Assembly: GCA_049969715.1 (NCBI GenBank)
Contig: JBMFOH010000046.1
Location: 1-8,620, forward strand
Length of the DNA: 8,620 bases
Origin: JBMFOH01 sp049969715 [NCBI: bacterium]
GTDB taxonomy: Bacteria > DUMJ01
Direction: 5' to 3'
A program made the translations under genes and the position numbers. This document shows positions 135 through 8,458 of this stretch, piece by piece (the stretch's first letter is position 1; each line of letters begins with the position of its first letter). Under the pieces are notes generated by a model. The model searched no databases, was not told the origin of the DNA, and saw nothing but the letters and a program-made list of their open reading frames with translations.

Positions 135-162
135 TTGACTTTTGATAAAAATATATTATAAT
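135..162 (+). promoter_or_regulatory. Sigma-A-like promoter upstream of the ADP-ribosylglycohydrolase gene
   Basis: The -35 element is TTGACT at 135-140 (5 of 6 consensus bases) and the -10 element is a perfect TATAAT at 157-162, with a 16-base spacer. The spacer is very AT-rich. Transcription would start near 168-170, inside the palindrome at 167-188, leaving a leader of about 40 bases before the ATG at 208. It is the strongest promoter match seen in the window and probably drives the whole hydrolase-importer-regulator block. Confidence 0.8.
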
Positions 163-166
163 TGCT

Positions 167-188
167 ATTGAGCAATGGATTGCTCAAT
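167..188. promoter_or_regulatory. 22-bp palindrome over the start site, candidate repressor operator
   Basis: Two perfect 10-base arms, ATTGAGCAAT at 167-176 and ATTGCTCAAT at 179-188, flank a GG centre. The site starts 5 bases after the -10 element and covers the expected +1, where a bound repressor would block transcription. LacI-family proteins bind palindromes of about this size, and a LacI-type gene lies at the end of the same gene block (4857-5852), so autoregulation of the locus is a natural inference. An extra half-site ATTGCT at 161-166 forms a second, overlapping inverted repeat with AGCAAT at 171-176. The centre is GG, not the CG common in LacI-family sites, so the match to the family is not decisive. 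Confidence 0.65.
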
Positions 189-207: not shown

Positions 208-1563
208 ATGCAAAGAGAATATCTCAGTTATTATAGAAGACTTAAAACAGAAATCTTGCAAAGTCAAGATGAAGGGAAGGATTTATTAGGTCTAGAGGAA
301 GAGATACAAAAGGTCTCAGCAATGAAGGCTGATGAAAGAGAAGAACTTTCAGCGAAACTCTTAGATAAACTACAATTACTACCTCTCAGAGAAGATTTTA
401 GATATATAGAACCATCTGATCTTGAAGGCATTCTAAATGAAGCCAATGGCGAGTTTAAATTATACCAGACGAAAGTAGAATCTAGTGAAAAACTATTCAA
501 TAAAATCTATGGTGCCTGGCTAGGAAGGATTGCTGGATGTCTTTTGGGAAAGCCGGTAGAAGGATGGCCAAGAGATAAGATCTGGGACTTTTTAAAAGAT
601 ACAGACAATTTTCCTCTATCTAGATATATCTCTTCAGATGTAACTCAAGAGATAAAAGAGAGATATGGGATAAATGACGATAAATCCAGAGGATGGATCA
701 ATAAAATAGAGCATATGGTAGAGGATGATGATACAAACTATACTATTCTTGGGCTCTATATCTTTGAGAAATATGGTCCCAATTTTACATCTGAAGATGT
801 GGCAGAATCTTGGCTATATAACCTTCCTATATTTCATACCTATACAGCAGAAAGGGTAGCCTATCAGAATCTTGTAAATCTAATAATGCCTCCAAAATCT
901 GGCGAATATAGAAATCCTTATAGAGAATGGATAGGAGCTCAGATAAGGGCAGATTTTTGGGGATATATATCACCTGGAAATCCACTGAAAGCAGCAGAAT
1001 TTGCATTTAGGGATGCCTGTGTCTCCCACGTAAAAAATGGGATATATGGAGAGATGTTTATAGCAGCTTGTCTAGCTTGGGCATTTGTCTCAGATAATAT
1101 ACTAGATGTGATAAGGGTAGGTCTTTCAGTAATACCTAAAAGAAGTAGATTCTATGAGGCAATAAACAAGATATTAGGTTTTAGGGAAGAAGGGAAGACA
1201 TTTGAAGAGGTAAGAGATTATATCTATCAGACTTATGAAAAAGGAAAACGCTATGAAGAATACTGGCATAACTGGTGTCATGTCATCTCAAATGCACTGG
1301 TAGTGGTAAGTTCTCTTCTTTATAGTGAGCTTGATTATGAGAAAGGGATCACCTATGCAGTAAGCTGTGGTCTTGATACTGACTGTAACGGGGCAACGAC
1401 AGGCTCTATATTGGGGGCTATCATAGGTGCTAAGGACCTTCCTGAGAAATGGATAAAACCGATAAACAACGAGATAGAATCAGGAGTCTCTGGGTATAAT
1501 TTCTGTAAGGTATCTAGCTTAGCTCAAAGGACTATTGAACTTATCAGAGAGATGAAAGATTAA
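208..1563 (+). CDS. ADP-ribosylglycohydrolase (DraG/ARH)-family protein
   Basis: The protein has 451 residues, longer than the roughly 300 usual for DraG/ARH enzymes. Residues 1-95 form a charged, helix-rich N-terminal extension. The catalytic fold begins near residue 98 with GAWLGRIAGCLLGKPVEG (102-119). The metal-binding acid cluster is EDDDTNYT (172-179), matching the family [ST]DDT motif, and the second metal motif is CGLDTDCNGATTGS (387-400), matching GGDTDxN. NGIYGEMFIAA (277-287) is a further family block. All expected metal-binding Asp residues seem present, so it should be active. Family members remove N- or O-linked ADP-ribose or cleave related N-glycosides with Mg2+. No signal peptide is seen, so it acts in the cytoplasm. 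Beside a sugar ABC importer and LacI it probably hydrolyses an imported glycoside or nucleoside-like compound, as suggested for E. coli YegU, but the substrate is unknown. The ATG has a strong GGAGGAGG at 199-206, unusually close to it; TAA at 190-192 rules out an earlier in-frame start. Confidence 0.9.
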   Translation: MQREYLSYYRRLKTEILQSQDEGKDLLGLEEEIQKVSAMKADEREELSAKLLDKLQLLPLREDFRYIEPSDLEGILNEANGEFKLYQTKVESSEKLFNKIYGAWLGRIAGCLLGKPVEGWPRDKIWDFLKDTDNFPLSRYISSDVTQEIKERYGINDDKSRGWINKIEHMVEDDDTNYTILGLYIFEKYGPNFTSEDVAESWLYNLPIFHTYTAERVAYQNLVNLIMPPKSGEYRNPYREWIGAQIRADFWGYISPGNPLKAAEFAFRDACVSHVKNGIYGEMFIAACLAWAFVSDNILDVIRVGLSVIPKRSRFYEAINKILGFREEGKTFEEVRDYIYQTYEKGKRYEEYWHNWCHVISNALVVVSSLLYSELDYEKGITYAVSCGLDTDCNGATTGSILGAIIGAKDLPEKWIKPINNEIESGVSGYNFCKVSSLAQRTIELIREMKD

Positions 1564-1582
1564 GGGTAATAAGAAGGGAGTG

Positions 1583-1639
1583 ATGCCTGGAGAAAAGGAA
1601 TATAGTAGTTATAAAGGTTTGAGAATTCAGTCAAGTTAA
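1583..1639 (+). CDS. Possible 18-residue leader peptide ORF
   Basis: A short reading frame of 18 codons, ATG 1583 to TAA 1637-1639, lies between the hydrolase and binding-protein genes. Its product would be MPGEKEYSSYKGLRIQSS. A purine-rich AAGGGAG at 1574-1580 sits just upstream, and AAGGG ends 4 bases before the ATG, the same spacing as at 1767 and 3178. Its stop abuts a small ACCC/GAAA/GGGT hairpin (1639-1650). It could be a leader peptide that couples translation to the downstream stem-loops, but an ORF this short arises easily by chance. Confidence 0.2.
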   Translation: MPGEKEYSSYKGLRIQSS

Positions 1640-1653
1640 CCCGAAAGGGTAGT

Positions 1654-1698
1654 TTTAGATAGCAGTTTTAAAAGAGTGATAAGGGATTGCTGTCTAAA
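1654..1698 (+). promoter_or_regulatory. Leader stem-loop upstream of the solute-binding protein gene
   Basis: TTTAGATAGCA at 1654-1664 pairs with TGCTGTCTAAA at 1688-1698: 11 base pairs with one G-U wobble, around a 23-base loop. No run of T follows, so it is not a standard terminator. It lies in the 203-base gap between the hydrolase and transporter genes, where I see no convincing promoter, so the transporter is probably read through from the upstream promoter. A role in transcript processing or in setting the binding-protein level is possible. I could not assign it to a known riboswitch class. Confidence 0.4.
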
Positions 1699-1735
1699 GA
1701 TTTAAGTTTGAATGGAAACCTTAGAGTAAAAATTT

Positions 1736-1749
1736 GCCAAAGTTTTGGC
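1736..1749 (+). promoter_or_regulatory. Small hairpin just upstream of the binding-protein ribosome site
   Basis: GCCAA (1736-1740) pairs with TTGGC (1745-1749) around an AGTT loop; as DNA it is a 14-bp palindrome. It ends 6 bases before the Shine-Dalgarno AAGGAGG (1756-1762), so it leaves the ribosome site free and could help keep it unpaired. It could also be a protein-binding site, but it does not resemble the palindrome at 167-188. Confidence 0.3.
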
Positions 1750-1766
1750 TTAAAGAAGGAGGTTTT

Positions 1767-3116
1767 ATGGTGGCTAAAATTAGTTTTTTGAGAAGGAAGA
1801 TGTTTCCAATTATCCTCTCTATAATTATATTGTTTATCTTTAATGCAAGTGCCTTTGGACAGGAGAAGATAACTATAACTTGGTGGTATGAGTCGGTGCT
1901 TCCTCAAAATTTAGAAGCAATGCAGAAAGATTTAATAGAACCTTACGAAAAAGCTCATCCTAATATTCATGTAGAAATAACTGTGAAAGAGCAATTATTA
2001 GAGACCGTTAGAACAGCTGTTTCTGCAGGTGGTGGCCCAGATATAATTATGACTATGGGTCCTGCAGAGGCTAACAAGTATGCTGAAGCAGGTTTACTAG
2101 TCCCTCTCGATCCATACGTAACAAAAGGAGGGTTAAACAAATTATTACCTGCTTTTGCACTAGATCTTGGAAGATTTAGGGGAAGAATCTACTCACTTCC
2201 AAAGACTTTTGAGAGTATGGGAATTATATACAACAAGACCCTCTTTGATAAGTATGGATGGAAACCACCTACAAATAGAAAGGAATGGGTAGATCTTTGT
2301 AATGCTATTAAAGCAAAAGGGATTCAGCCAATTATATCAGGATGTAGTGATTGGCGTCCTACCCACGAACACTTTGTAACCTGTTACCTTAATCATTATG
2401 CCGGACCGGATAATGTATATAAGGCTCTAACAGGAAAGATGAAGTGGTCTGATAAAGTTTTCGTTGATGCAATTAAGATGTTTAAGGATGATTTTCTAAA
2501 CTATTGGCCTAAAATGGATACCTATTTTGCAATAGGTCCTGACTCCTATGTACCGCAAGTCGCTATGGAAAAAGCAGCTATGTTAGTTGTAGGATCTTGG
2601 GGATTCCAATGGATGAGAGACCCCGCCTATTGGCCAACTAAAGACCAATACGCATGGGCTCCGTTCCCTTCACTTAGAGAAGGGGTCCCATATCCTCTTC
2701 TTTCAGTTGGTGTAGGAACGACCCTTTCGGTGAATAAGGCATCTAAACATGTTAAAGAAACAGCTGAATTTTTGGTTTGGATGTTAAGCTATAAAGAAGG
2801 GATTGCAAAATTAACAAAAGATTTTCCTGGAGAATGGCTTGTACCTATAGATATCTCGAAAGATCTTATACCAAAGGATGCAGACCCAGTATTTATAGAG
2901 CACTATTTTACTCAGTCTGAATTGATGAAAAAAGGTGCATATGGATATACAACATGGACATTCCTTGGACCTGATACATGGCGCTGGTGTTATGAAAATA
3001 TCGAACAGGTATGGTCAGGTAAGATGACCCCAGAAGATTATATGAAGGGATGGGAAGAGACTTTTAGAAAAGAAGTTAAGGCAGGTGCTGTACCACCAGT
3101 GCCCAGAAGGAAGTAA
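1767..3116 (+). CDS. Sugar ABC transporter, family 1 extracellular solute-binding protein
   Basis: This is the substrate-capture subunit of a carbohydrate ABC importer, acting outside the inner membrane. I choose ATG 1767 (449 residues) over TTG 1734: AAGGAGG at 1756-1762 sits 4 bases before the ATG, and the protein then starts directly with a signal peptide. That peptide has a basic n-region (KISFLRRK), a hydrophobic core (about residues 12-27) and ASA or AFG cleavage sites (after residue 29 or 31). There is no lipobox Cys, so the mature protein is not a lipoprotein. Family 1 features include GGGPDIIMTMGP with the following EAGLLVPLDPY, then SMGIIYNKTLFDKYGW, and AAMLVVGSWGFQWM. The many Trp and Tyr residues fit sugar-ring stacking. 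It heads a binding protein-permease-permease set typical of CUT1 importers. The ligand is unknown; an oligosaccharide or glycoside is likely. Confidence 0.92.
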   Translation: MVAKISFLRRKMFPIILSIIILFIFNASAFGQEKITITWWYESVLPQNLEAMQKDLIEPYEKAHPNIHVEITVKEQLLETVRTAVSAGGGPDIIMTMGPAEANKYAEAGLLVPLDPYVTKGGLNKLLPAFALDLGRFRGRIYSLPKTFESMGIIYNKTLFDKYGWKPPTNRKEWVDLCNAIKAKGIQPIISGCSDWRPTHEHFVTCYLNHYAGPDNVYKALTGKMKWSDKVFVDAIKMFKDDFLNYWPKMDTYFAIGPDSYVPQVAMEKAAMLVVGSWGFQWMRDPAYWPTKDQYAWAPFPSLREGVPYPLLSVGVGTTLSVNKASKHVKETAEFLVWMLSYKEGIAKLTKDFPGEWLVPIDISKDLIPKDADPVFIEHYFTQSELMKKGAYGYTTWTFLGPDTWRWCYENIEQVWSGKMTPEDYMKGWEETFRKEVKAGAVPPVPRRK

Positions 3117-3124
3117 GATAGTTA

Positions 3125-3150
3125 AGGGGATGGGGAATTCCCCATCCCCT
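3125..3150 (+). promoter_or_regulatory. Perfect 26-bp palindrome (RNA hairpin) between binding protein and permease
   Basis: Bases 3125-3137 are exactly complementary to 3138-3150, with AATT at the centre and G/C-rich arms that stand out in this AT-rich region. As RNA it would form an 11-bp stem with a 4-base loop. It begins 8 bases after the binding-protein stop, and only a weak T-rich stretch (CTTTTC) follows. This position is where many binding-protein operons carry a partial terminator or a 3'-protecting hairpin that keeps the binding-protein message more abundant than the permease messages. Full termination is unlikely because the permease ribosome site follows at 3168-3173. Confidence 0.7.
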
Positions 3151-3177
3151 AATCAACTTTTCAATATAGGAGGCATC

Positions 3178-4026
3178 ATGGACAGAAATAAGGTCTTACA
3201 AGTAAAAAATGTTTCTCCATTTATAATTCCAGGTTTAACAATTAATCTGTTTGTTATCCTTGTACCCTCAATTTTGACCTTAGTCTTATCTTTTTTTGAG
3301 TGGGATGGTCTTGGTCCTATACGCTTTGTAGGTATAAAGAATTTTATTACCCTGTTATCTGAAAGAGGCTTTTGGCAAGCAATAATTCACAATATTATCT
3401 GGACTTTAATCTTTATTACAATTCCCGTAGGTTTAGGACTATTAGGTGCTGAGCTCCTTAGAAGAACTAGATGGAATTTTCTCGAATCTTTCTACTTTCT
3501 GCCTGTCACATTACCTGCAGTAATAGTTGCTATTATATGGAGATATATCTATGACCCTATGAGAGGGATAGGGAAAATCATAGGCATAGCATTATTAGGG
3601 CATTCAGATACTGCTCTTTATGCTATTGCCTTAGCTAATATATGGGCATGGTGGGGTTTTCTATGTGCAGTATTTTTTAGTGCTATTCAAGGAGTGCCTG
3701 TAGAATTATATGAGTCAGCTACCCTAGATGGAGCTAATAGTTGGCAAGAATTTCGTTATATTACACTACCTCAAATTGCGCCATCCATAGTGCTAATGGA
3801 AATAATGACTATAATTTGGTCCTTTCAGGTTTTTGATTGGGTTTGGGCTACTACTCAGGGAGGACCTGCAGGAGCAAGTGAACTTTTAGCTACTCTTCTA
3901 TATAAAGAAGCATTCTACTCATATAGGATAGGAACGGCTTCTGCAATTGGTGTGGTAATCTCATTCTTTGGACTTCTAGCAATTACTCTATTATATTATC
4001 TTAGACGAAGGGGGATGGAAGTATGA
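3178..4026 (+). CDS. Sugar ABC transporter permease, MalF/UgpA type
   Basis: This 282-residue inner-membrane subunit forms half of the importer channel. ATG 3178 is chosen because AGGAGG (3168-3173) precedes it; the frame is open further upstream but that part crosses the binding-protein end and the palindrome. About six hydrophobic segments are visible (near residues 14-38, 68-92, 106-126, 148-170, 203-223 and 253-275). The cytoplasmic EAA loop that docks the ATPase is ESATLDGANSWQEFRYITLP (179-198). The TQGGPAGASELLATLLY block (226-242) is typical of MalF-like proteins, as is the length for those lacking the large MalF periplasmic insert. Its stop overlaps the next ATG (ATGA, 4023-4026), implying coupled translation and equal amounts of the two permeases. 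Confidence 0.93.
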   Translation: MDRNKVLQVKNVSPFIIPGLTINLFVILVPSILTLVLSFFEWDGLGPIRFVGIKNFITLLSERGFWQAIIHNIIWTLIFITIPVGLGLLGAELLRRTRWNFLESFYFLPVTLPAVIVAIIWRYIYDPMRGIGKIIGIALLGHSDTALYAIALANIWAWWGFLCAVFFSAIQGVPVELYESATLDGANSWQEFRYITLPQIAPSIVLMEIMTIIWSFQVFDWVWATTQGGPAGASELLATLLYKEAFYSYRIGTASAIGVVISFFGLLAITLLYYLRRRGMEV

Positions 4027-4853
4027 TGCCTTTAAAATCTAATATACATTTATTTGAATTACTACCCTTGATAATACTTTTATTATATACGTTATTTCCG
4101 TTGTATATGGCTATAAGCACTTCTTTTAAAAATCCGGGTGAACTATTTTTAAATCCCTTTGGACCTCCAACTAAAATAAATGTGAATAATTATATAGGCG
4201 TATTAATGAATAAAGATTTTAAGAGAGCTTTTGTAAATACTATAATTTTGACGGTGGGTACAATAATAGGAGTTTTAGTTACGGCTATCCCTATGGCTTA
4301 TGCATTAGCAAAGATTAGTTTTCTAGGAAGTTCTCTTTTGATGAGTTATATATTCTTTTGTACAACTATCCCTGCCCAACTTTTTATTGTTCCTCTTTAT
4401 CATATCTTTGCTAGAATTGGATTTTTAAATTCCTTGTTGGGAATGATATTGGTTTATGTAGCTGTATTATCTCCCTTTCAAATATTATTACTACGTTCAT
4501 ACTTTATAACTATTCCTCAGGAATTATTTGAAGCAGCTTTGGTAGATGGAGCATCGTGGTGGAAAGCTCTCTGGCAGATCATTCTTCCAGCAGCTCGACC
4601 TGGCGTAACTACTTCAGTTGTCTTAGTGGCAATGAACAGTTGGCATCAATTTTTACTACCATTAACTTTTTTACAGAAATCTCAATTGCAACCTCTTACT
4701 GTAGCTGTGGCAATGTTCCAGGGGCAATGGTCAGTGGATTGGGGGAAAATGATATCTGCATCTTTACTTAGTGTCTTACCTATTGTAATATTGTTTGCCT
4801 TATTACGTAGAAAATTTATAGCAGGATTAGCTGCAACAGGTATAAAAGGTTAG
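4023..4853 (+). CDS. Sugar ABC transporter permease, MalG/UgpE type
   Basis: This 276-residue second channel subunit pairs with the product of the gene it overlaps. Hydrophobic segments lie near residues 11-32, 72-96, 105-129, 138-158, 195-215 and 243-262. The EAA loop is EAALVDGASWWKALWQIILP (170-189), and the C-terminus RRKFIAGLAATGIKG is characteristic of the MalG side. The start is ATG 4023 in the ATGA overlap, with AGGGGGA at 4009-4015; ATG 4026 is an equally possible start one codon later. No MalK/UgpC-like ATPase follows, and the next gene is the regulator, so the ATPase must come from elsewhere. Many Firmicutes and Thermotogae share one ATPase among several such importers. Confidence 0.93.
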   Translation: MMPLKSNIHLFELLPLIILLLYTLFPLYMAISTSFKNPGELFLNPFGPPTKINVNNYIGVLMNKDFKRAFVNTIILTVGTIIGVLVTAIPMAYALAKISFLGSSLLMSYIFFCTTIPAQLFIVPLYHIFARIGFLNSLLGMILVYVAVLSPFQILLLRSYFITIPQELFEAALVDGASWWKALWQIILPAARPGVTTSVVLVAMNSWHQFLLPLTFLQKSQLQPLTVAVAMFQGQWSVDWGKMISASLLSVLPIVILFALLRRKFIAGLAATGIKG

Positions 4854-4856
4854 CCT

Positions 4857-5852
4857 ATGCCAAGAGAAGGTCGAATTACAATATATAAAATTGCAGAAGA
4901 ACTTGGGGTTTCGCCATCTACTGTTTCTAGGGCATTAAATAATACTGGAAGAATGAGCCAAGAGTTAAGGAATAAGATAGTTGAGCTTGCTAAGAAGTAT
5001 AACTATATCCCTAATGAGGCAGCAAAAGGGCTTAGAACCAAGTCTTCTATGCTTCTTGGCTTAATAGTACCTGATATAGCAAACCCTTACTATGTGAATG
5101 TGGCTAGAGGGGCTCAGGATGAGGCAGATAGATATGGTTATTCTATTGCTATCTGTAATACAGATGATAAGCCAGATTTAGAAAAGAAAAGAATAATTAC
5201 ATTGGTAAAGAAACAGGTAGATGGTCTATTGGTATTTAATTTCTTTAATAACAAGGATACCTTAGAACTCCTTAAGACTCTTTCTGTCCCTATAATTCTC
5301 TTTAACCCTCCTCCTAGAAATTATAAGTTTGTTCATATAAAGCATGATACATCTGTTATAAGCTCTCTATTGGCTTATCTATTGAATAAAAGCTATAGAA
5401 AGATAGCCCATATAGCTGGAGACCAAAGGACTATAGTCGGAACACTTCGTCTTAGACATTTCGTTCATTTTTTGAAATCTCATAATATTCCTTTAAAGGA
5501 AGAATGGATTATAGAAAGCGACTTTACATATAAAGGTGGGTATGATGCTATGAAAAGGCTACTCTCTTTAGAAGAAAGGCCTCGTGCAGTATGGGCTTCA
5601 AATGATATGATGGCTATAGGGGCAATGGATGCTATAAAAGAAGCTGGACTTAGCGTCCCTAAAGATATTGCAGTAGCAGGATGTGACGATATCGAATACG
5701 CGTCTCTAGTGAGTCCAAAGTTGACTACTATTTATAAACCTAAGTATGAGCTTGGAACTTTAGCTGTAAAACTACTTGTAAATTTAATAAGAGGGGAAGA
5801 GATAAGTATAGAGACTCTCAAAGATGAATTAATAATAAGAGAATCTGCTTAA
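4857..5852 (+). CDS. LacI/GalR-family transcriptional regulator
   Basis: This 331-residue protein has the usual family length and layout. An N-terminal helix-turn-helix (about 8-28) carries the family recognition helix SPSTVSRALN (19-28). A hinge (about 52-64, IPNEAAKGLRTKSS) includes the Leu that family members insert into the operator minor groove. A periplasmic-binding-protein-like effector domain follows from about 66: LLGLIVPDIANPYY (66-79), ASNDMMAIG and VAGCDDIEYASLVSPKLTTI. It begins 3 bases after the permease stop, with only a weak AAAGG (4845-4849), so it is probably translated by coupling and is cotranscribed with the transporter. It likely represses the locus through the palindrome at 167-188 and is released by the imported compound or a product of it. 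The effector is not identifiable. Confidence 0.93.
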   Translation: MPREGRITIYKIAEELGVSPSTVSRALNNTGRMSQELRNKIVELAKKYNYIPNEAAKGLRTKSSMLLGLIVPDIANPYYVNVARGAQDEADRYGYSIAICNTDDKPDLEKKRIITLVKKQVDGLLVFNFFNNKDTLELLKTLSVPIILFNPPPRNYKFVHIKHDTSVISSLLAYLLNKSYRKIAHIAGDQRTIVGTLRLRHFVHFLKSHNIPLKEEWIIESDFTYKGGYDAMKRLLSLEERPRAVWASNDMMAIGAMDAIKEAGLSVPKDIAVAGCDDIEYASLVSPKLTTIYKPKYELGTLAVKLLVNLIRGEEISIETLKDELIIRESA

Positions 5853-5897: not shown

Positions 5898-6620
5898 ATG
5901 GATATAGTTGTTAATGTAGAAGGATTAAAGAAAAACTATGGTAATATTCAGGCATTAAAAGGAATAAGCTTCCATATCAATAAGGGAGAGATATTTGCCC
6001 TTATAGGTCCTAATGGAGCTGGAAAGACAACGACTTTAAGAATTATTGCTACCCTCCTTTCTCCGTCCGAGGGAAGAATAACTGTATTGGACTATGACTT
6101 AAAGAAAGAACCAGAAAGAATAAGAGAAAGTATAAGCTATCTTCCTGAAGAAGCAGGTGCTTACAGGAATCTCAAAGGGATAGAATACCTAAATTTCATG
6201 GCAAAATTTTACTCTTCAAATCCTAAAGATATAGAAAAGTTTCTAGAGAGGGCAGAGGGGATAGCAGAACTTGGAGACCGTCTCAATGATAAGATAGGAA
6301 CATACAGTAAGGGTATGGTAAGAAAATTGCTTCTAGCAAGAGCTTTAATGACGATGCCTCCTCTTACTATCCTTGATGAGCCAACATCTGGACTTGATGT
6401 TATAAATTCTTTAGAGGTAAGAGAGATTATTAAAAGATATGTAAAAGAGGGGACTTCGGTCCTTCTCTCCTCTCATAATATGCTAGAGATAGAGTTTCTC
6501 TCTGATAGGGTTGCTCTTATAGATAAAGGAATAATCTTAGAGGTAGGGACCCCAAAAGAGCTAAAGGAGAAGTACAATGCTAGTAATCTAGAAGAGGTCT
6601 TCAGAGAGGTAGTAAGATGA
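5898..6620 (+). CDS. ABC-2-type transporter ATP-binding protein (NatA-like)
   Basis: This 240-residue cytoplasmic ATPase energises the membrane protein encoded next. Walker A is GPNGAGKTT (37-45). The Q-loop region reads YLPEEAGAY (81-89), with Glu in place of Gln as is common in this subfamily. The signature is YSKGM (136-140), Walker B is LTILDE (156-161), the D-loop is GLD (165-167) and the switch His is H193. All catalytic parts are present. The start is fixed by the standard beginning of the fold (VEGLKKNYG). No Shine-Dalgarno precedes the ATG (5880-5897 is AT-rich with no purine run), and the promoter puts the RNA start at the ATG, so translation is probably leaderless. The end overlaps the permease by ATGA. 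The NatAB resemblance is to the family; Na+ export is not established. Confidence 0.9.
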   Translation: MDIVVNVEGLKKNYGNIQALKGISFHINKGEIFALIGPNGAGKTTTLRIIATLLSPSEGRITVLDYDLKKEPERIRESISYLPEEAGAYRNLKGIEYLNFMAKFYSSNPKDIEKFLERAEGIAELGDRLNDKIGTYSKGMVRKLLLARALMTMPPLTILDEPTSGLDVINSLEVREIIKRYVKEGTSVLLSSHNMLEIEFLSDRVALIDKGIILEVGTPKELKEKYNASNLEEVFREVVR

Positions 6621-7903
6621 GAAAATTTATCAATCTATTAAGAAAAGAAGTCAAGGAGCTTATTACATTCCAATTAATTATTTCCCTTGTTTTTACCTTC
6701 TTTCTCTTTTTATTTATGGGAGATATAATGAAAAGAGAGATGAAAAAGGCTTCTAGTTCTCAAACAATATATATACTCGATCTCGATAACTCTTCTCTCT
6801 CTAAGAAGGTTATAAATAATCTCGCATTTTTTAACTTTAAGATTTCTCTCCTTGAAAAGAAGGATAAAGAAGAGGCAATAGAATATGCTAGAAAGAGTAA
6901 CATCAGTCTTCTTCTTGTTATTCCTAGACAGTTTGAGGATTCTATATTAAAATTTAAAGGAAAAGATATTGAAACCTATTCATTTATCAAAAGTTTTTCT
7001 GTAGCTGGCACAAGTGCCACCGGAATAGTAAATTATATCATCTCTGCAATAAATAGAGTTATATCTGATGATTTATTAAAGAGTAAGGTTCCAAATATAG
7101 ACCCTCAAGAATTAAAAAATCCAGTGAAAAATAAAGAGTTTGTAGTTGTAAAAGATAAGATTGCTCAAGGTTCTCCTCAAGATGTTCTCAATTTTGTCTA
7201 TTCCCAATCTGTTTTTTTGCCCATAATACTTATGATGATAATAGTATACTCTTCACAGATGGTCATCTCTGCAATGGCGATGGAAAAGGAGAATAAGACA
7301 TTAGAAACTCTCTTGACTGTTCCAATAAATCGAAGAGATATAGTACTAGCAAAGATGCTCTCTTCAGGCATTGTAGGCTTGATTTCTGCCGGAATTTATA
7401 TGATAGGATTTAGAAACTATATGGGGGAATTTGTAAATAAAGTGCCAACAGCTACTCAGCTGAGTATGGTAATCCAAGAACTTGGACTATCTCTTACTGT
7501 CCAGGGGTATATAATTCTAGGGATCTCACTATTTTTAGCTATCCTCTGTGCACTCTCTATGGCTATCATCCTAGGGGTATTAGCAGAAGATTTAAAAACT
7601 GCTCAAGGGCTAATCATTCTTATAATCTTTCCAACTATGGTCCCGTATTTCCTTTCTATCTTCTCTGATATAAATTCCCTCTCTCTGCCTGCAAAGATTA
7701 TTGTTTGGCTGATACCATTTTCTCATCCATTTTTAGCATTACAAAATATACTCTTAGGAAACTATATCCAAATTTTTTATGGCATATTCTATATGACTTT
7801 GGTATTCGCCATTTTAGTTATAATTGCTACCCGCATCTTTTCTTCTGATAGAATACTTATTATGAAGTTGCAATTTAGAAGATTGAGAAGATTGAGAAGA
7901 TAA
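6617..7903 (+). CDS. ABC-2-type transporter permease (NatB-like)
   Basis: This 428-residue membrane partner of the preceding ATPase is translationally coupled to it through the ATGA overlap. Topology from hydropathy: one N-terminal segment (about 17-36), a large soluble extracytoplasmic domain (about 40-190) opening with IYILDLDNSS, then a membrane bundle (about 198-218, 248-265, 296-322, 328-350, 360-380 and 386-405). After the second segment comes the ABC-2 coupling motif EKENKTLETLLTVPINRR (223-240), continuing to LAKML. This architecture belongs to NatB/YhaP-like exporters of ions, drugs or lipids; the cargo is unknown. The C-terminus ends in RRLRRLRR, encoded by a 9-bp tandem repeat, giving a strongly basic cytoplasmic tail. 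The stop codon abuts the next ATG. Confidence 0.88.
   Translation: MRKFINLLRKEVKELITFQLIISLVFTFFLFLFMGDIMKREMKKASSSQTIYILDLDNSSLSKKVINNLAFFNFKISLLEKKDKEEAIEYARKSNISLLLVIPRQFEDSILKFKGKDIETYSFIKSFSVAGTSATGIVNYIISAINRVISDDLLKSKVPNIDPQELKNPVKNKEFVVVKDKIAQGSPQDVLNFVYSQSVFLPIILMMIIVYSSQMVISAMAMEKENKTLETLLTVPINRRDIVLAKMLSSGIVGLISAGIYMIGFRNYMGEFVNKVPTATQLSMVIQELGLSLTVQGYIILGISLFLAILCALSMAIILGVLAEDLKTAQGLIILIIFPTMVPYFLSIFSDINSLSLPAKIIVWLIPFSHPFLALQNILLGNYIQIFYGIFYMTLVFAILVIIATRIFSSDRILIMKLQFRRLRRLRR
7877..7901 (+). repeat. 9-bp tandem repeat, about 2.8 copies, at the permease 3' end
   Basis: AGAAGATTG occurs at 7877-7885 and 7886-7894, followed by a partial AGAAGAT at 7895-7901. In frame it encodes Arg-Arg-Leu repeats and runs into the stop codon. 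The unit also contains GAGAAG, the only purine-rich sequence available as a ribosome site for the gene at 7904, so changes in copy number could alter both the tail of the permease and translation of the next gene. Confidence 0.85.
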
Positions 7904-8458
7904 ATGTGTATAATAGCAGTATGTATAAGTAGAAAACTCTCTAAAGGGGAGATGGAGTTTGGATGGGAAAGAAATCCACATGGAAGTGGAATAGGCTGGT
8001 TTGAAAACGGGAGAGTAAATTATATAAAAGGACTTATGCATCTTGAAGATTTTAAAAAAGAGTATGAAAGAATTGGAATCTTACCGCATATAGTTCATTT
8101 TAGATATGCCTCAAGTGGTATGAAGATAAATCCTAAGCTTACTCATCCATTTATAGTGAGTGAGGTTTCTCCTATAAGGCTGAGATATAAAGGACAGAAG
8201 CCTATAATATTCCATAATGGTACTATAGAAGGATGGAAAGATTACTATGAGTCATTCATAAAGTTAAAGTTTAGAAAGGATAGCCTTTCAGATACAAGGA
8301 TTATGGCAATGGTATGGGCAGAAAGAAAAGAGGAAACCTTCAAGATATTTAACCCAGGGAGGGTAGCTATACTTTTACCTTCTGGAGAGATAAAAAGGTA
8401 TGGAGAATGGGTAGAAAAAGAAGGTATATACTTGTCAAATAGCCAGTTAATCGGCTGA
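7904..8458 (+). CDS. Class II (Ntn-type) glutamine amidotransferase-like protein, stand-alone
   Basis: This is a 184-residue protein consisting only of the amidotransferase domain. The start MCIIAV places Cys2 as the N-terminal nucleophile after Met removal, the hallmark of class II glutamine amidotransferases. Other family elements follow in order: NPHGSGIGWF (24-33), HFRYASSG (65-72), HPF (81-83), HNG (104-106, the oxyanion and glutamine-binding turn) and SDTR (129-132). It should hydrolyse glutamine or a related amide, but no synthase domain or obvious acceptor partner is present. YafJ-like and phage-encoded small amidotransferases look similar, and most have no known substrate. The ATG directly follows the ABC-2 permease stop (TAAATG) and lacks a good Shine-Dalgarno, implying coupling. 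Its 3' end overlaps a convergent gene by 12 bases. Confidence 0.83.
   Translation: MCIIAVCISRKLSKGEMEFGWERNPHGSGIGWFENGRVNYIKGLMHLEDFKKEYERIGILPHIVHFRYASSGMKINPKLTHPFIVSEVSPIRLRYKGQKPIIFHNGTIEGWKDYYESFIKLKFRKDSLSDTRIMAMVWAERKEETFKIFNPGRVAILLPSGEIKRYGEWVEKEGIYLSNSQLIG

What the first reader, a model, noticed from the sequence alone, without database searches (positions are those of the whole stretch)
208..5852. ADP-ribosylglycohydrolase-family enzyme inside a LacI-regulated sugar ABC import locus
The DraG/ARH-type fold has intact metal motifs (EDDDTNYT, DTDCN), yet its neighbours are a carbohydrate-type importer and a LacI-type regulator, with no ADP-ribosyltransferase in view. Known biology gives a parallel in E. 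coli yegTUV, where a nucleoside transporter, an ARH-family protein and a PfkB-type kinase are grouped. I infer that the enzyme degrades an imported glycoside or nucleoside-like compound and not protein ADP-ribosylation. This would be a poorly described catabolic route.
Basis: partly seen in the sequence, partly recalled or inferred. Interest (0 to 1): 0.6.

Follow-up and report, generated by a model that had tools for sequence, protein, structure and literature searches.

The report
Putative ribosidase in sugar-import operon
A bacterial enzyme of a family known for removing ADP-ribose from proteins sits in what looks like a repressor-controlled sugar-uptake operon and, judging by its relatives' neighbours, probably frees ribose from an imported compound; its predicted metal site differs from the known enzymes in two positions.

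Summary
In detail: 208-1563 encodes an ARH-fold enzyme, followed by a CUT1-type importer (binding protein, two permeases) and a LacI regulator; no ADP-ribosyltransferase is in the window. "Intact metal motifs" needs correcting: in 120 relatives the canonical TDDT Thr is Asp in 119 and the second DTDT Thr is Cys in 120. A perfect 22-bp palindrome lies just behind the best promoter match, upstream of the ARH gene. The window's SBP and MalF are matched best beside ARH in two distant genomes (Spirochaetaceae MAG, Diplocloster), not in most others. Across the family, LacI and binding proteins are not enriched near ARH; PfkB kinases are (4.5-fold at 0-2 kb against 4-10 kb), and 12 of 14 tested score best as ribokinase, four over the curated cut-off; five loci also hold a nucleoside hydrolase. 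Best reading: a riboside hydrolase feeding ribokinase, probably on alpha-ribosides. Parallels exist (E. coli yegTUV, staphylococcal ARH-permease-ribokinase), so this is a new variant of a known but biochemically unproven kind. Substrate, metal and host are unproven.

The parts
135..162 (+). sigma-70-like promoter TTGACT-16-TATAAT
   Evidence: 11 of 12 consensus matches, the best of 32 in the window; the number found is no more than in shuffles (mean 30.1), so the site rests on its place
167..188 (.). perfect palindrome ATTGAGCAAT-GG-ATTGCTCAAT, putative operator of the LacI-type repressor
   Evidence: 10 of 10 paired arms; 0.085 such expected per 8620 bases; binding by this LacI is inferred; no exact copy of its 20-base core in the 156 fetched loci
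208..1563 (+). ADP-ribosylglycohydrolase-fold enzyme of the DDD/DTDCN subfamily, 451 aa, about 90-residue N-terminal extension
1654..1698 (+). stem-loop in the ARH-SBP spacer (11-nt arms, 91% complementary)
   Evidence: fold z-score of 1562-1770 is -2.1; no Rfam match over its gathering score; function unknown
1767..3116 (+). family-1 solute-binding protein with an N-terminal signal-like segment and no lipobox Cys by eye
   Evidence: PF01547 136.1 bits; ATG at 1767 behind GGAGG; nearest solved chain 4g68, E 2.8e-29
3125..3150 (+). perfect 26-base palindrome between SBP and permease genes
   Evidence: script; role inferred (expression step-down as between malE and malF, recalled)
3178..4026 (+). 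MalF-type permease
   Evidence: PF00528 57.3 bits
4023..4853 (+). MalG-type permease, 4-nt overlap with the gene before
   Evidence: PF00528 68.1 bits
4857..5852 (+). LacI-family regulator; best NCBIfam model RbsR 231.7 bits, below its cut-off of 531

Best explanation
The locus is a repressor-controlled uptake-and-hydrolysis operon. A CUT1 ABC importer (no ATPase gene for it in the window, so presumably encoded elsewhere) brings in a ribose-containing compound; the ARH-fold enzyme hydrolyses its ribosidic bond at a binuclear metal centre, most likely in an alpha-ribofuranoside, since ARH enzymes cut alpha-ribosyl bonds; the D-ribose released goes to a ribokinase encoded outside the window. The LacI protein blocks the promoter at the palindrome 167-188 until an inducer is present. 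Shown: genes, predicted fold, retained acidic residues at the ribose-contact positions, palindrome and promoter match, importer-ARH pairing in two other genomes, ribokinase and nucleoside hydrolase neighbours in a minority of relatives. Inferred: substrate, anomer, metal, repressor-operator pairing, co-transcription, the kinase's existence in this host.
For: (1) PfkB genes lie within 0-2 kb of ARH 4.5 times as densely as at 4-10 kb (10 against 4 genes, one-sided p 0.007; with 0-4 kb the ratio is 3.2, p 0.03; no correction for the six families tried). Of 16 loci with such a kinase in 121, 14 kinases were scanned: ribokinase is the best NCBIfam model in 12, four of them over the TIGR02152 cut-off of 299.65 (L015 306.6, L016 348, L087 316, L103 329.8); exceptions L019 and L054; L041 and L058 not scanned. 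(2) Nucleoside hydrolases in 7 of 121 loci; L005, L016, L019, L024 and L076 hold ARH, PfkB and nucleoside hydrolase together, though L019's kinase is not best as ribokinase. (3) In G022 and G033 the best hits genome-wide to the window's SBP and MalF both lie beside ARH (SBP 299.4 against 54.9 and 122.3 against 78.2 bits; MalF 190.9 against 120.2 and 184.7 against 137.6), and L022 reads SBP-MalF-MalG-ARH-ribokinase-like. (4) In ARH3, Asp77 and Asp314 contact the ribose 2''- and 3''-OH and bind metal (PMC8141533, passages); taking YegU's TDDT and DTDT as the equivalents, the matching D174 and D390 are each kept in 119 of 120 relatives. (5) Palindrome behind the promoter match ahead of ARH. (6) Parallel triads: yegTUV, yegV matching only the ribokinase model at E 1e-20, 83 bits, and staphylococcal ADP-ribosylglycohydrolase-permease-ribokinase (PMC3637587, PMC3900703, passages).
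Against: No ribokinase or nucleoside hydrolase lies in the window itself. Most relatives lack these neighbours: of 119 immediate same-strand neighbours PfkB is 5 and IU_nuc_hydro 2; MFS 6 and GNAT acetyltransferase 5 are as common, and GH20C 3, RuvC 3, DUF2961 2, rhamnosidase 2 also occur, besides GH3, GH116 and a sugar-isomerase-like protein. None of the 60 solved SBPs shown (of 472) is named a nucleoside binder; they include chitin-, xylo- and arabino-oligosaccharide binders. LacI orthology is weak: in 1 of 8 genomes is the best LacI hit in the ARH locus, and G022's LacI beside ARH scores 91.6 against 126.9 elsewhere. SBP best hits are beside ARH in only 3 of 24 genomes, MalF in 2 of 13. The nucleoside hydrolase excess near ARH is not significant (p 0.21). 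The ARH tree gives no supported place to the window's enzyme, and importer neighbours need 11 changes for 13 labelled rows.
Confidence: 0.5

Rival explanations
1. The enzyme hydrolyses another small glycoside (for example an arabinofuranoside or other furanoside) and the ARH fold was recruited as a general glycosidase; different members use different substrates.
For: Varied neighbours: GH20C 3, DUF2961 2, rhamnosidase 2 of 119; DUF2961 at 3 loci; GH3 in L021, GH116 in L030; SBP nearest to oligosaccharide binders.
Against: The sequence motifs are almost invariant across 120 relatives, which argues for one core reaction; 12 of 14 scanned kinases are best as ribokinase.
Confidence: 0.25
2. ARH and importer are neighbours by chance or only loosely linked; the importer serves an unrelated sugar.
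For: No family-wide excess of SBP or LacI near ARH; a spacer of about 200 bp separates ARH from SBP; of 24 genomes with an SBP hit, 16 have the best one away from ARH, and for 5 its place was not printed.
Against: Best-hit SBP and MalF beside ARH in G022 and G033; at E 1e-33 or better these were the only SBP hits among 391 Clostridia and 247 Spirochaetota genomes, although those groups were centred on these genomes and few candidates per genome were scored; no terminator-like site on the + strand of the spacer.
Confidence: 0.12
3. The enzyme removes ADP-ribose from protein, as DraG or ARH1/ARH3 do.
For: Same fold, Z 26.8 to 31.4 to ARH1, DraG and ARH3 entries; Gly and His that I take to match the pyrophosphate-contact residues of ARH3 (PMC6309922, passages) are kept as G243 (120 of 120) and H274 (119 of 120).
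Against: TIGR02662 (DraG) 37.4 bits against a cut-off of 337.05; no ADP-ribosyltransferase found among eight genes, the rest of the genome unseen; the segment before the pyrophosphate loop (NPYREWIG) is conserved in the subfamily and unlike YegU's; neighbours in relatives include transporters and sugar kinases.
Confidence: 0.06
4. The enzyme acts on a nucleotide sugar or ADP-ribose-like metabolite (as suggested for yegTUV and ADP-glucose).
For: The yegTUV repressor GgaR senses ADP-glucose as effector (PMC10819704, passages).
Against: [quoted passage not shown] YegU and this enzyme align only through distant profiles; CUT1 importers for nucleotide sugars are not known to me (recalled).
Confidence: 0.07

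Closest known systems
E. coli yegT-yegU-yegV
   Same: Transporter, ARH-family protein and sugar kinase adjacent on one strand; yegV's only NCBIfam match at E 1e-20 is ribokinase, 83 bits, below the cut-off.
   Different: Nucleoside-symporter-type MFS transporter and GntR repressor; YegU has canonical TDDT and DTDT and no N-terminal extension; function unproven.
Staphylococcal ADP-ribosylglycohydrolase-permease-ribokinase genes in SCC regions
   Same: Transporter plus ARH plus ribokinase (passages).
   Different: Cytosine/purine-type permease; no ABC importer or LacI named beside them in the passages; sequences not compared here.
ARH3 / DraG / MJ1187 (PF03747 fold)
   Same: Fold; Glu and four Asp of the metal site at matching places.
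   Different: Two Thr metal ligands replaced by Asp and Cys; subfamily motifs NPYREWIGAQIR and KNGIYGEM; extension of about 90 residues.
L022, Spirochaetaceae MAG, SBP-MalF-MalG-ARH-kinase operon
   Same: Nearest anatomical relative found: SBP 36%, MalF 41%, ARH 50% identity.
   Different: Carries a ribokinase-like kinase; its LacI gene is divergent in orientation and is not the closest LacI in that genome.

Membership tests
PF03747 ADP-ribosylglycohydrolase superfamily | Pfam gathering score and ARH fold | tested here: met
   178.8 against 26.2 bits; Z 31.4 to 6g1p; hhalign probability 99.6%, E 2.4e-24 to eight ARH proteins
Canonical ARH1/ARH3/DraG-type enzyme | full set of metal ligands (ARH3: Thr76, Asp77, Asp78, Asp314, Asp316, Thr317; Glu41 recalled) | tested here: not met
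   Glu and four Asp kept; both Thr replaced, by Asp173 and Cys393
DraG (TIGR02662) | NCBIfam equivalog cut-off 337.05 bits | tested here: not met
   37.4 bits
DraG (TIGR02662) | partner ADP-ribosyltransferase (DraT) | tested here: inconclusive
   none found among the eight window genes; no genome is held
yegTUV-like transporter-ARH-kinase module | transporter next to ARH | tested here: met
yegTUV-like transporter-ARH-kinase module | PfkB/ribokinase in the operon | tested here: not met
   none in the window, though present in L022
CUT1 sugar importer | SBP_bac_1 plus two BPD_transp_1 permeases | tested here: met
LacI-family regulator | LacI HTH and sugar-binding ligand domain | tested here: met
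   PF00356 and Peripla_BP_3
LacI-family regulator | binds a palindromic operator at its operon | not testable with these tools
   palindrome present; binding needs an experiment
Riboside hydrolase | catalysis on ribosides | not testable with these tools
   needs enzyme assay

The most novel reading that the evidence does not exclude
The DDD/DTDCN proteins are an undescribed class of alpha-ribosidases whose binuclear centre carries an invariant cysteine ligand (so perhaps Mn, Fe or Zn in place of Mg). They work beside nucleoside hydrolases that take the beta-anomers and pass ribose to ribokinase, which opens a catabolic route for alpha-ribosides (such as alpha-ribazole-like or alpha-ADP-ribosyl debris) in bacteria and some archaea.
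Probability: 0.25. Interest if true: 0.7.

Novelty: new variant of a known kind. Interest (0 to 1): 0.45.

Why it matters
Members of this subfamily are found by sequence in records labelled Bacillota, Spirochaetota, Chloroflexota, Armatimonadota, Bacteroidota, Planctomycetota and archaea, and PF03747 names them after protein ADP-ribosylation. If they are ribosidases that feed sugar metabolism, that label is misleading, a missing catabolic step gains an enzyme, and the Thr-to-Cys change offers a direct test of how ARH metal sites evolve.

Tried and rejected
Own-genome search: no genome is held, so the host and any ribokinase of its genome remain unknown. Rfam: one hit at E 1 or better, 23 bits against a gathering score of 88, taken as chance. 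Sharing of the palindrome: no exact copy of its core in 156 loci; the inverted repeats listed for nine stretches of relatives (five longest at most per stretch) share no word with it by eye. Structure lookup adds fold only, not substrate; the model's N-terminal 90 residues are barely covered by matches. A profile against YegU alone aligned only 45 columns; with eight canonical proteins it aligned 305. Ten paper searches: in their listings I saw no biochemical study of this subfamily, and I opened passages of seven papers only; the library lacks most subscription journals. 'ADP-ribosylglycohydrolase' with 'ribofuranosidase' gave 0 papers. The Bacteroides ribose-scavenging (rus) locus, which I recall as holding an ARH-family gene, could not be checked: searches listed no paper describing it. 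A structure of the SBP was not predicted (one of two structure jobs used).

Limits of the survey: genes in relatives were called by a simple ORF script, not a gene finder; the local MalF and MalG profiles cross-match; profiles were seeded from clusters near ARH. L104 was dropped as a repeat of L004, and L081-L083 were left out. Six loci (L119-L124) are second ARH-like copies from genomes already counted. Genome G521 (two partial hits) was not fetched. The structure alignment took 73 relatives of 400-490 aa and left the others out. Of 180 chained same-strand neighbours 119 went to Pfam (first neighbours; four over about 1000 aa left out); the control took 119 of 180 genes drawn from those under 900 aa among 311. 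The family counts show only the 25 commonest families. The importer labels of the tree were set by hand.
Full report
What is there. The window carries eight + strand genes (ORFs of 80 aa or more). The first, 208-1563, is an ADP-ribosylglycohydrolase-fold protein (PF03747, 178.8 bits). It is followed by a family-1 solute-binding protein (ATG at 1767, read), two BPD_transp_1 permeases whose genes overlap by 4 nt, and a LacI-type regulator, then an ABC exporter pair and a GATase_6-like gene. No ADP-ribosyltransferase was found among them. The importer has no ATPase gene of its own here, which is common for CUT1 systems (recalled).

The enzyme. A relatives scan kept the best 80 of 587 stretches (a capped list), at 42-53% identity. 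An alignment of 74 proteins gave 47 invariant positions and, with no templates, an AlphaFold2 model of mean pLDDT 94.1. The nearest solved folds are ARH3, MJ1187 and DraG (Foldseek best E 4.7e-7 to 1t5j; Z 31.4 to 6g1p, 18% identity). A profile comparison with E. coli YegU and seven other ARH proteins aligned 305 columns at E 2.4e-24. In that register E118, D174, D175, D390 and D392 match the usual acidic residues, D173 takes the place of the Thr in YegU's TDDT, and C393 that of the second Thr in its DTDT. In human ARH3 those two Thr, with the Asp residues, bind the two magnesium ions, and Asp77 and Asp314 touch the ribose 2''- and 3''-OH (PMC8141533, passages read). Over 120 relatives C393 is kept in 120, D173 in 119 (one Asn), D174 in 119 (one Gly), D390 in 119 (one gap). 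So the ribose-contact acids are kept while one ligand of each metal site has changed. The DraG model is not met (37.4 against 337.05 bits).

The control region. The best promoter match of the window (TTGACT-16-TATAAT, 135-162) is followed at 167-188 by a perfect palindrome, ATTGAGCAAT-GG-ATTGCTCAAT, 19 bases before the ARH start codon. Promoter-like sites as such are no more frequent than in shuffles (32 against a mean of 30.1), so the argument rests on the place and on the palindrome, expected 0.085 times per 8620 bases in simulated sequence for arms with 3 or more G/C. The same scan found one other such palindrome in the window, at 3125-3150. No terminator-like site was found on the + strand between ARH and SBP. 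That the window's own LacI binds at 167-188 is inferred.

Is this importer really tied to ARH? In 29 genomes searched with the window's SBP, 24 had hits (ARH places). In three (G010, G022, G033) the best hit lies in the ARH locus; in 16 it lies elsewhere (in G006 on ARH's contig, 23 kb off, with SBP pieces also beside a second ARH-like copy); for five (G001, G028, G035, G040, G042) its place fell outside the printed list. G022 (Spirochaetaceae MAG) scores 299.4 bits against 54.9 for its next listed SBP, G033 (Diplocloster) 122.3 against 78.2. Of 13 genomes searched with MalF, the best hit is beside ARH in two, G022 (190.9 against 120.2) and G033 (184.7 against 137.6), elsewhere in nine, not printed for two. 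Of eight genomes searched with LacI, only in G010 is the best hit in the ARH locus, and barely (195.9 against 193.5 bits). At E 1e-33 or better the SBP was found in 1 of 391 Clostridia and 1 of 247 Spirochaetota genomes, both times beside ARH; both groups were centred on those genomes and only a few candidates per genome were scored, so this is suggestive, not a rate. The ARH subfamily itself is sporadic: 22 of 391 Clostridia and 15 of 301 Chloroflexota (E 1e-80), 2 of 149 Spirochaetota (E 1e-60), the centre genomes included.

Neighbours across the family. Over 121 loci (window, 80, 40 fetched) local profiles were scored by distance. PfkB kinases: 10 genes within 0-2 kb, 4 at 4-10 kb, rate ratio 4.5, p 0.007 (0-4 kb: 3.2, p 0.03); AraC regulators 13 against 7, ratio 3.4, p 0.007 (0-4 kb: 2.3, p 0.05); MalF/MalG ratio 1.8, p 0.08; nucleoside hydrolase 2.4, p 0.21; LacI 1.1; SBP 0.6 (one-sided, uncorrected). 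Among 119 immediate same-strand neighbours Pfam counted MFS 6, PfkB 5, GNAT acetyltransferase 5, AraC 4, BPD_transp_1 3, GH20C 3, RuvC 3, DUF2961 2, nucleoside hydrolase 2; among the 25 commonest families of 119 control genes 6-10 kb away, only AraC-type HTH (2) of these appears. In L103 the kinase gene overlaps the end of ARH by 4 nt on the same strand, and in L087 the called frames overlap likewise; L107 reads MFS, ARH, then a ribokinase-like gene 9 nt on, on the other strand.

What the kinase says. Of the 16 loci with PfkB, 14 kinases were scanned with NCBIfam: ribokinase is the best model in 12, over the TIGR02152 cut-off in L015, L016, L087 and L103; L019 and L054 differ. In L005, L016, L019, L024 and L076 a nucleoside hydrolase also lies in the neighbourhood. 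A ribokinase and a nucleoside hydrolase together point to D-ribose as the product. ADP-ribosylated residues, the known ARH substrates, are alpha-anomeric (PMC6309922, passages), whereas nucleosides are beta (established knowledge). My inference is that the ARH enzyme takes alpha-ribosides and the nucleoside hydrolase beta ones.

Known parallels. E. coli yegTUV has transporter, ARH and sugar kinase in a row; [quoted passage not shown] Staphylococcal SCC regions carry an ADP-ribosylglycohydrolase, a cytosine/purine-type permease and a ribokinase side by side (PMC3637587 and PMC3900703, passages). The general arrangement is thus not new; the CUT1/LacI form and the altered metal motif of this subfamily are what I saw no study of, within the searches listed under Tried and rejected.

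Against. The window itself holds no ribokinase. The SBP's nearest solved relatives include oligosaccharide binders and none named for nucleosides among the 60 shown. Glycoside hydrolases and unrelated genes also occur beside ARH. A tree of 74 ARH proteins gives the window no supported partner and needs 11 changes for 13 importer-bearing rows, so importers were joined to ARH repeatedly; the pairing with this importer type in distant genomes may itself have spread by transfer.

Verdict. A real import-and-hydrolysis locus, by its anatomy regulated; ribosidase with ribose as product is the best-supported function (0.5); protein de-ADP-ribosylation is unlikely (0.06). New variant of a known but biochemically unproven kind; interest 0.45.

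Noticed in passing
window 3125-3150: Perfect 26-base palindrome between the SBP and first permease gene, no T-run after it; resembles the hairpins that lower permease expression relative to the binding protein (recalled).
   Followed up: no
window 1562-1770: ARH-SBP spacer folds better than shuffles (z -2.1, 3 of 200 as good) around a strong stem at about 1654-1698.
   Followed up: partly
window 5898-8458: ABC exporter ATPase and ABC2 permease (4-nt overlap) and a GATase_6-like protein starting Met-Cys (PF13522 20.1 bits, below its cut-off of 27).
   Followed up: no
L146 and L153: Longer ARH-like proteins (about 450-520 aa) with DTDCT motifs and, by the script's pattern, no DDDT motif, in genomes that also hold the DTDCN type.
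   Followed up: no
L021:8951-9991 and 14673-15764: Two URO-D-like proteins near ARH in Robinsoniella, with a GH3 enzyme.
   Followed up: no
L084:8255-12745: Spirochaete locus with AraC, ARH, DHDPS-family and BNR-like genes in a row: another carbohydrate context.
   Followed up: no
L033:8355-9983 and L005:7345-9477: Proteins of 542 and 710 aa beside ARH without a Pfam match at 1e-6 or an NCBIfam match at 1e-10; the 542-aa one has no PDB match either at 0.001.
   Followed up: partly
Prevotella intermedia, PMC10434189 (passages): An ADP-ribosylglycohydrolase-family gene lies in a hemin-uptake (HmuY) locus and is reported 8.5-fold upregulated with it; its subfamily was not checked. Another non-ADP-ribosylation context.
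   Followed up: no
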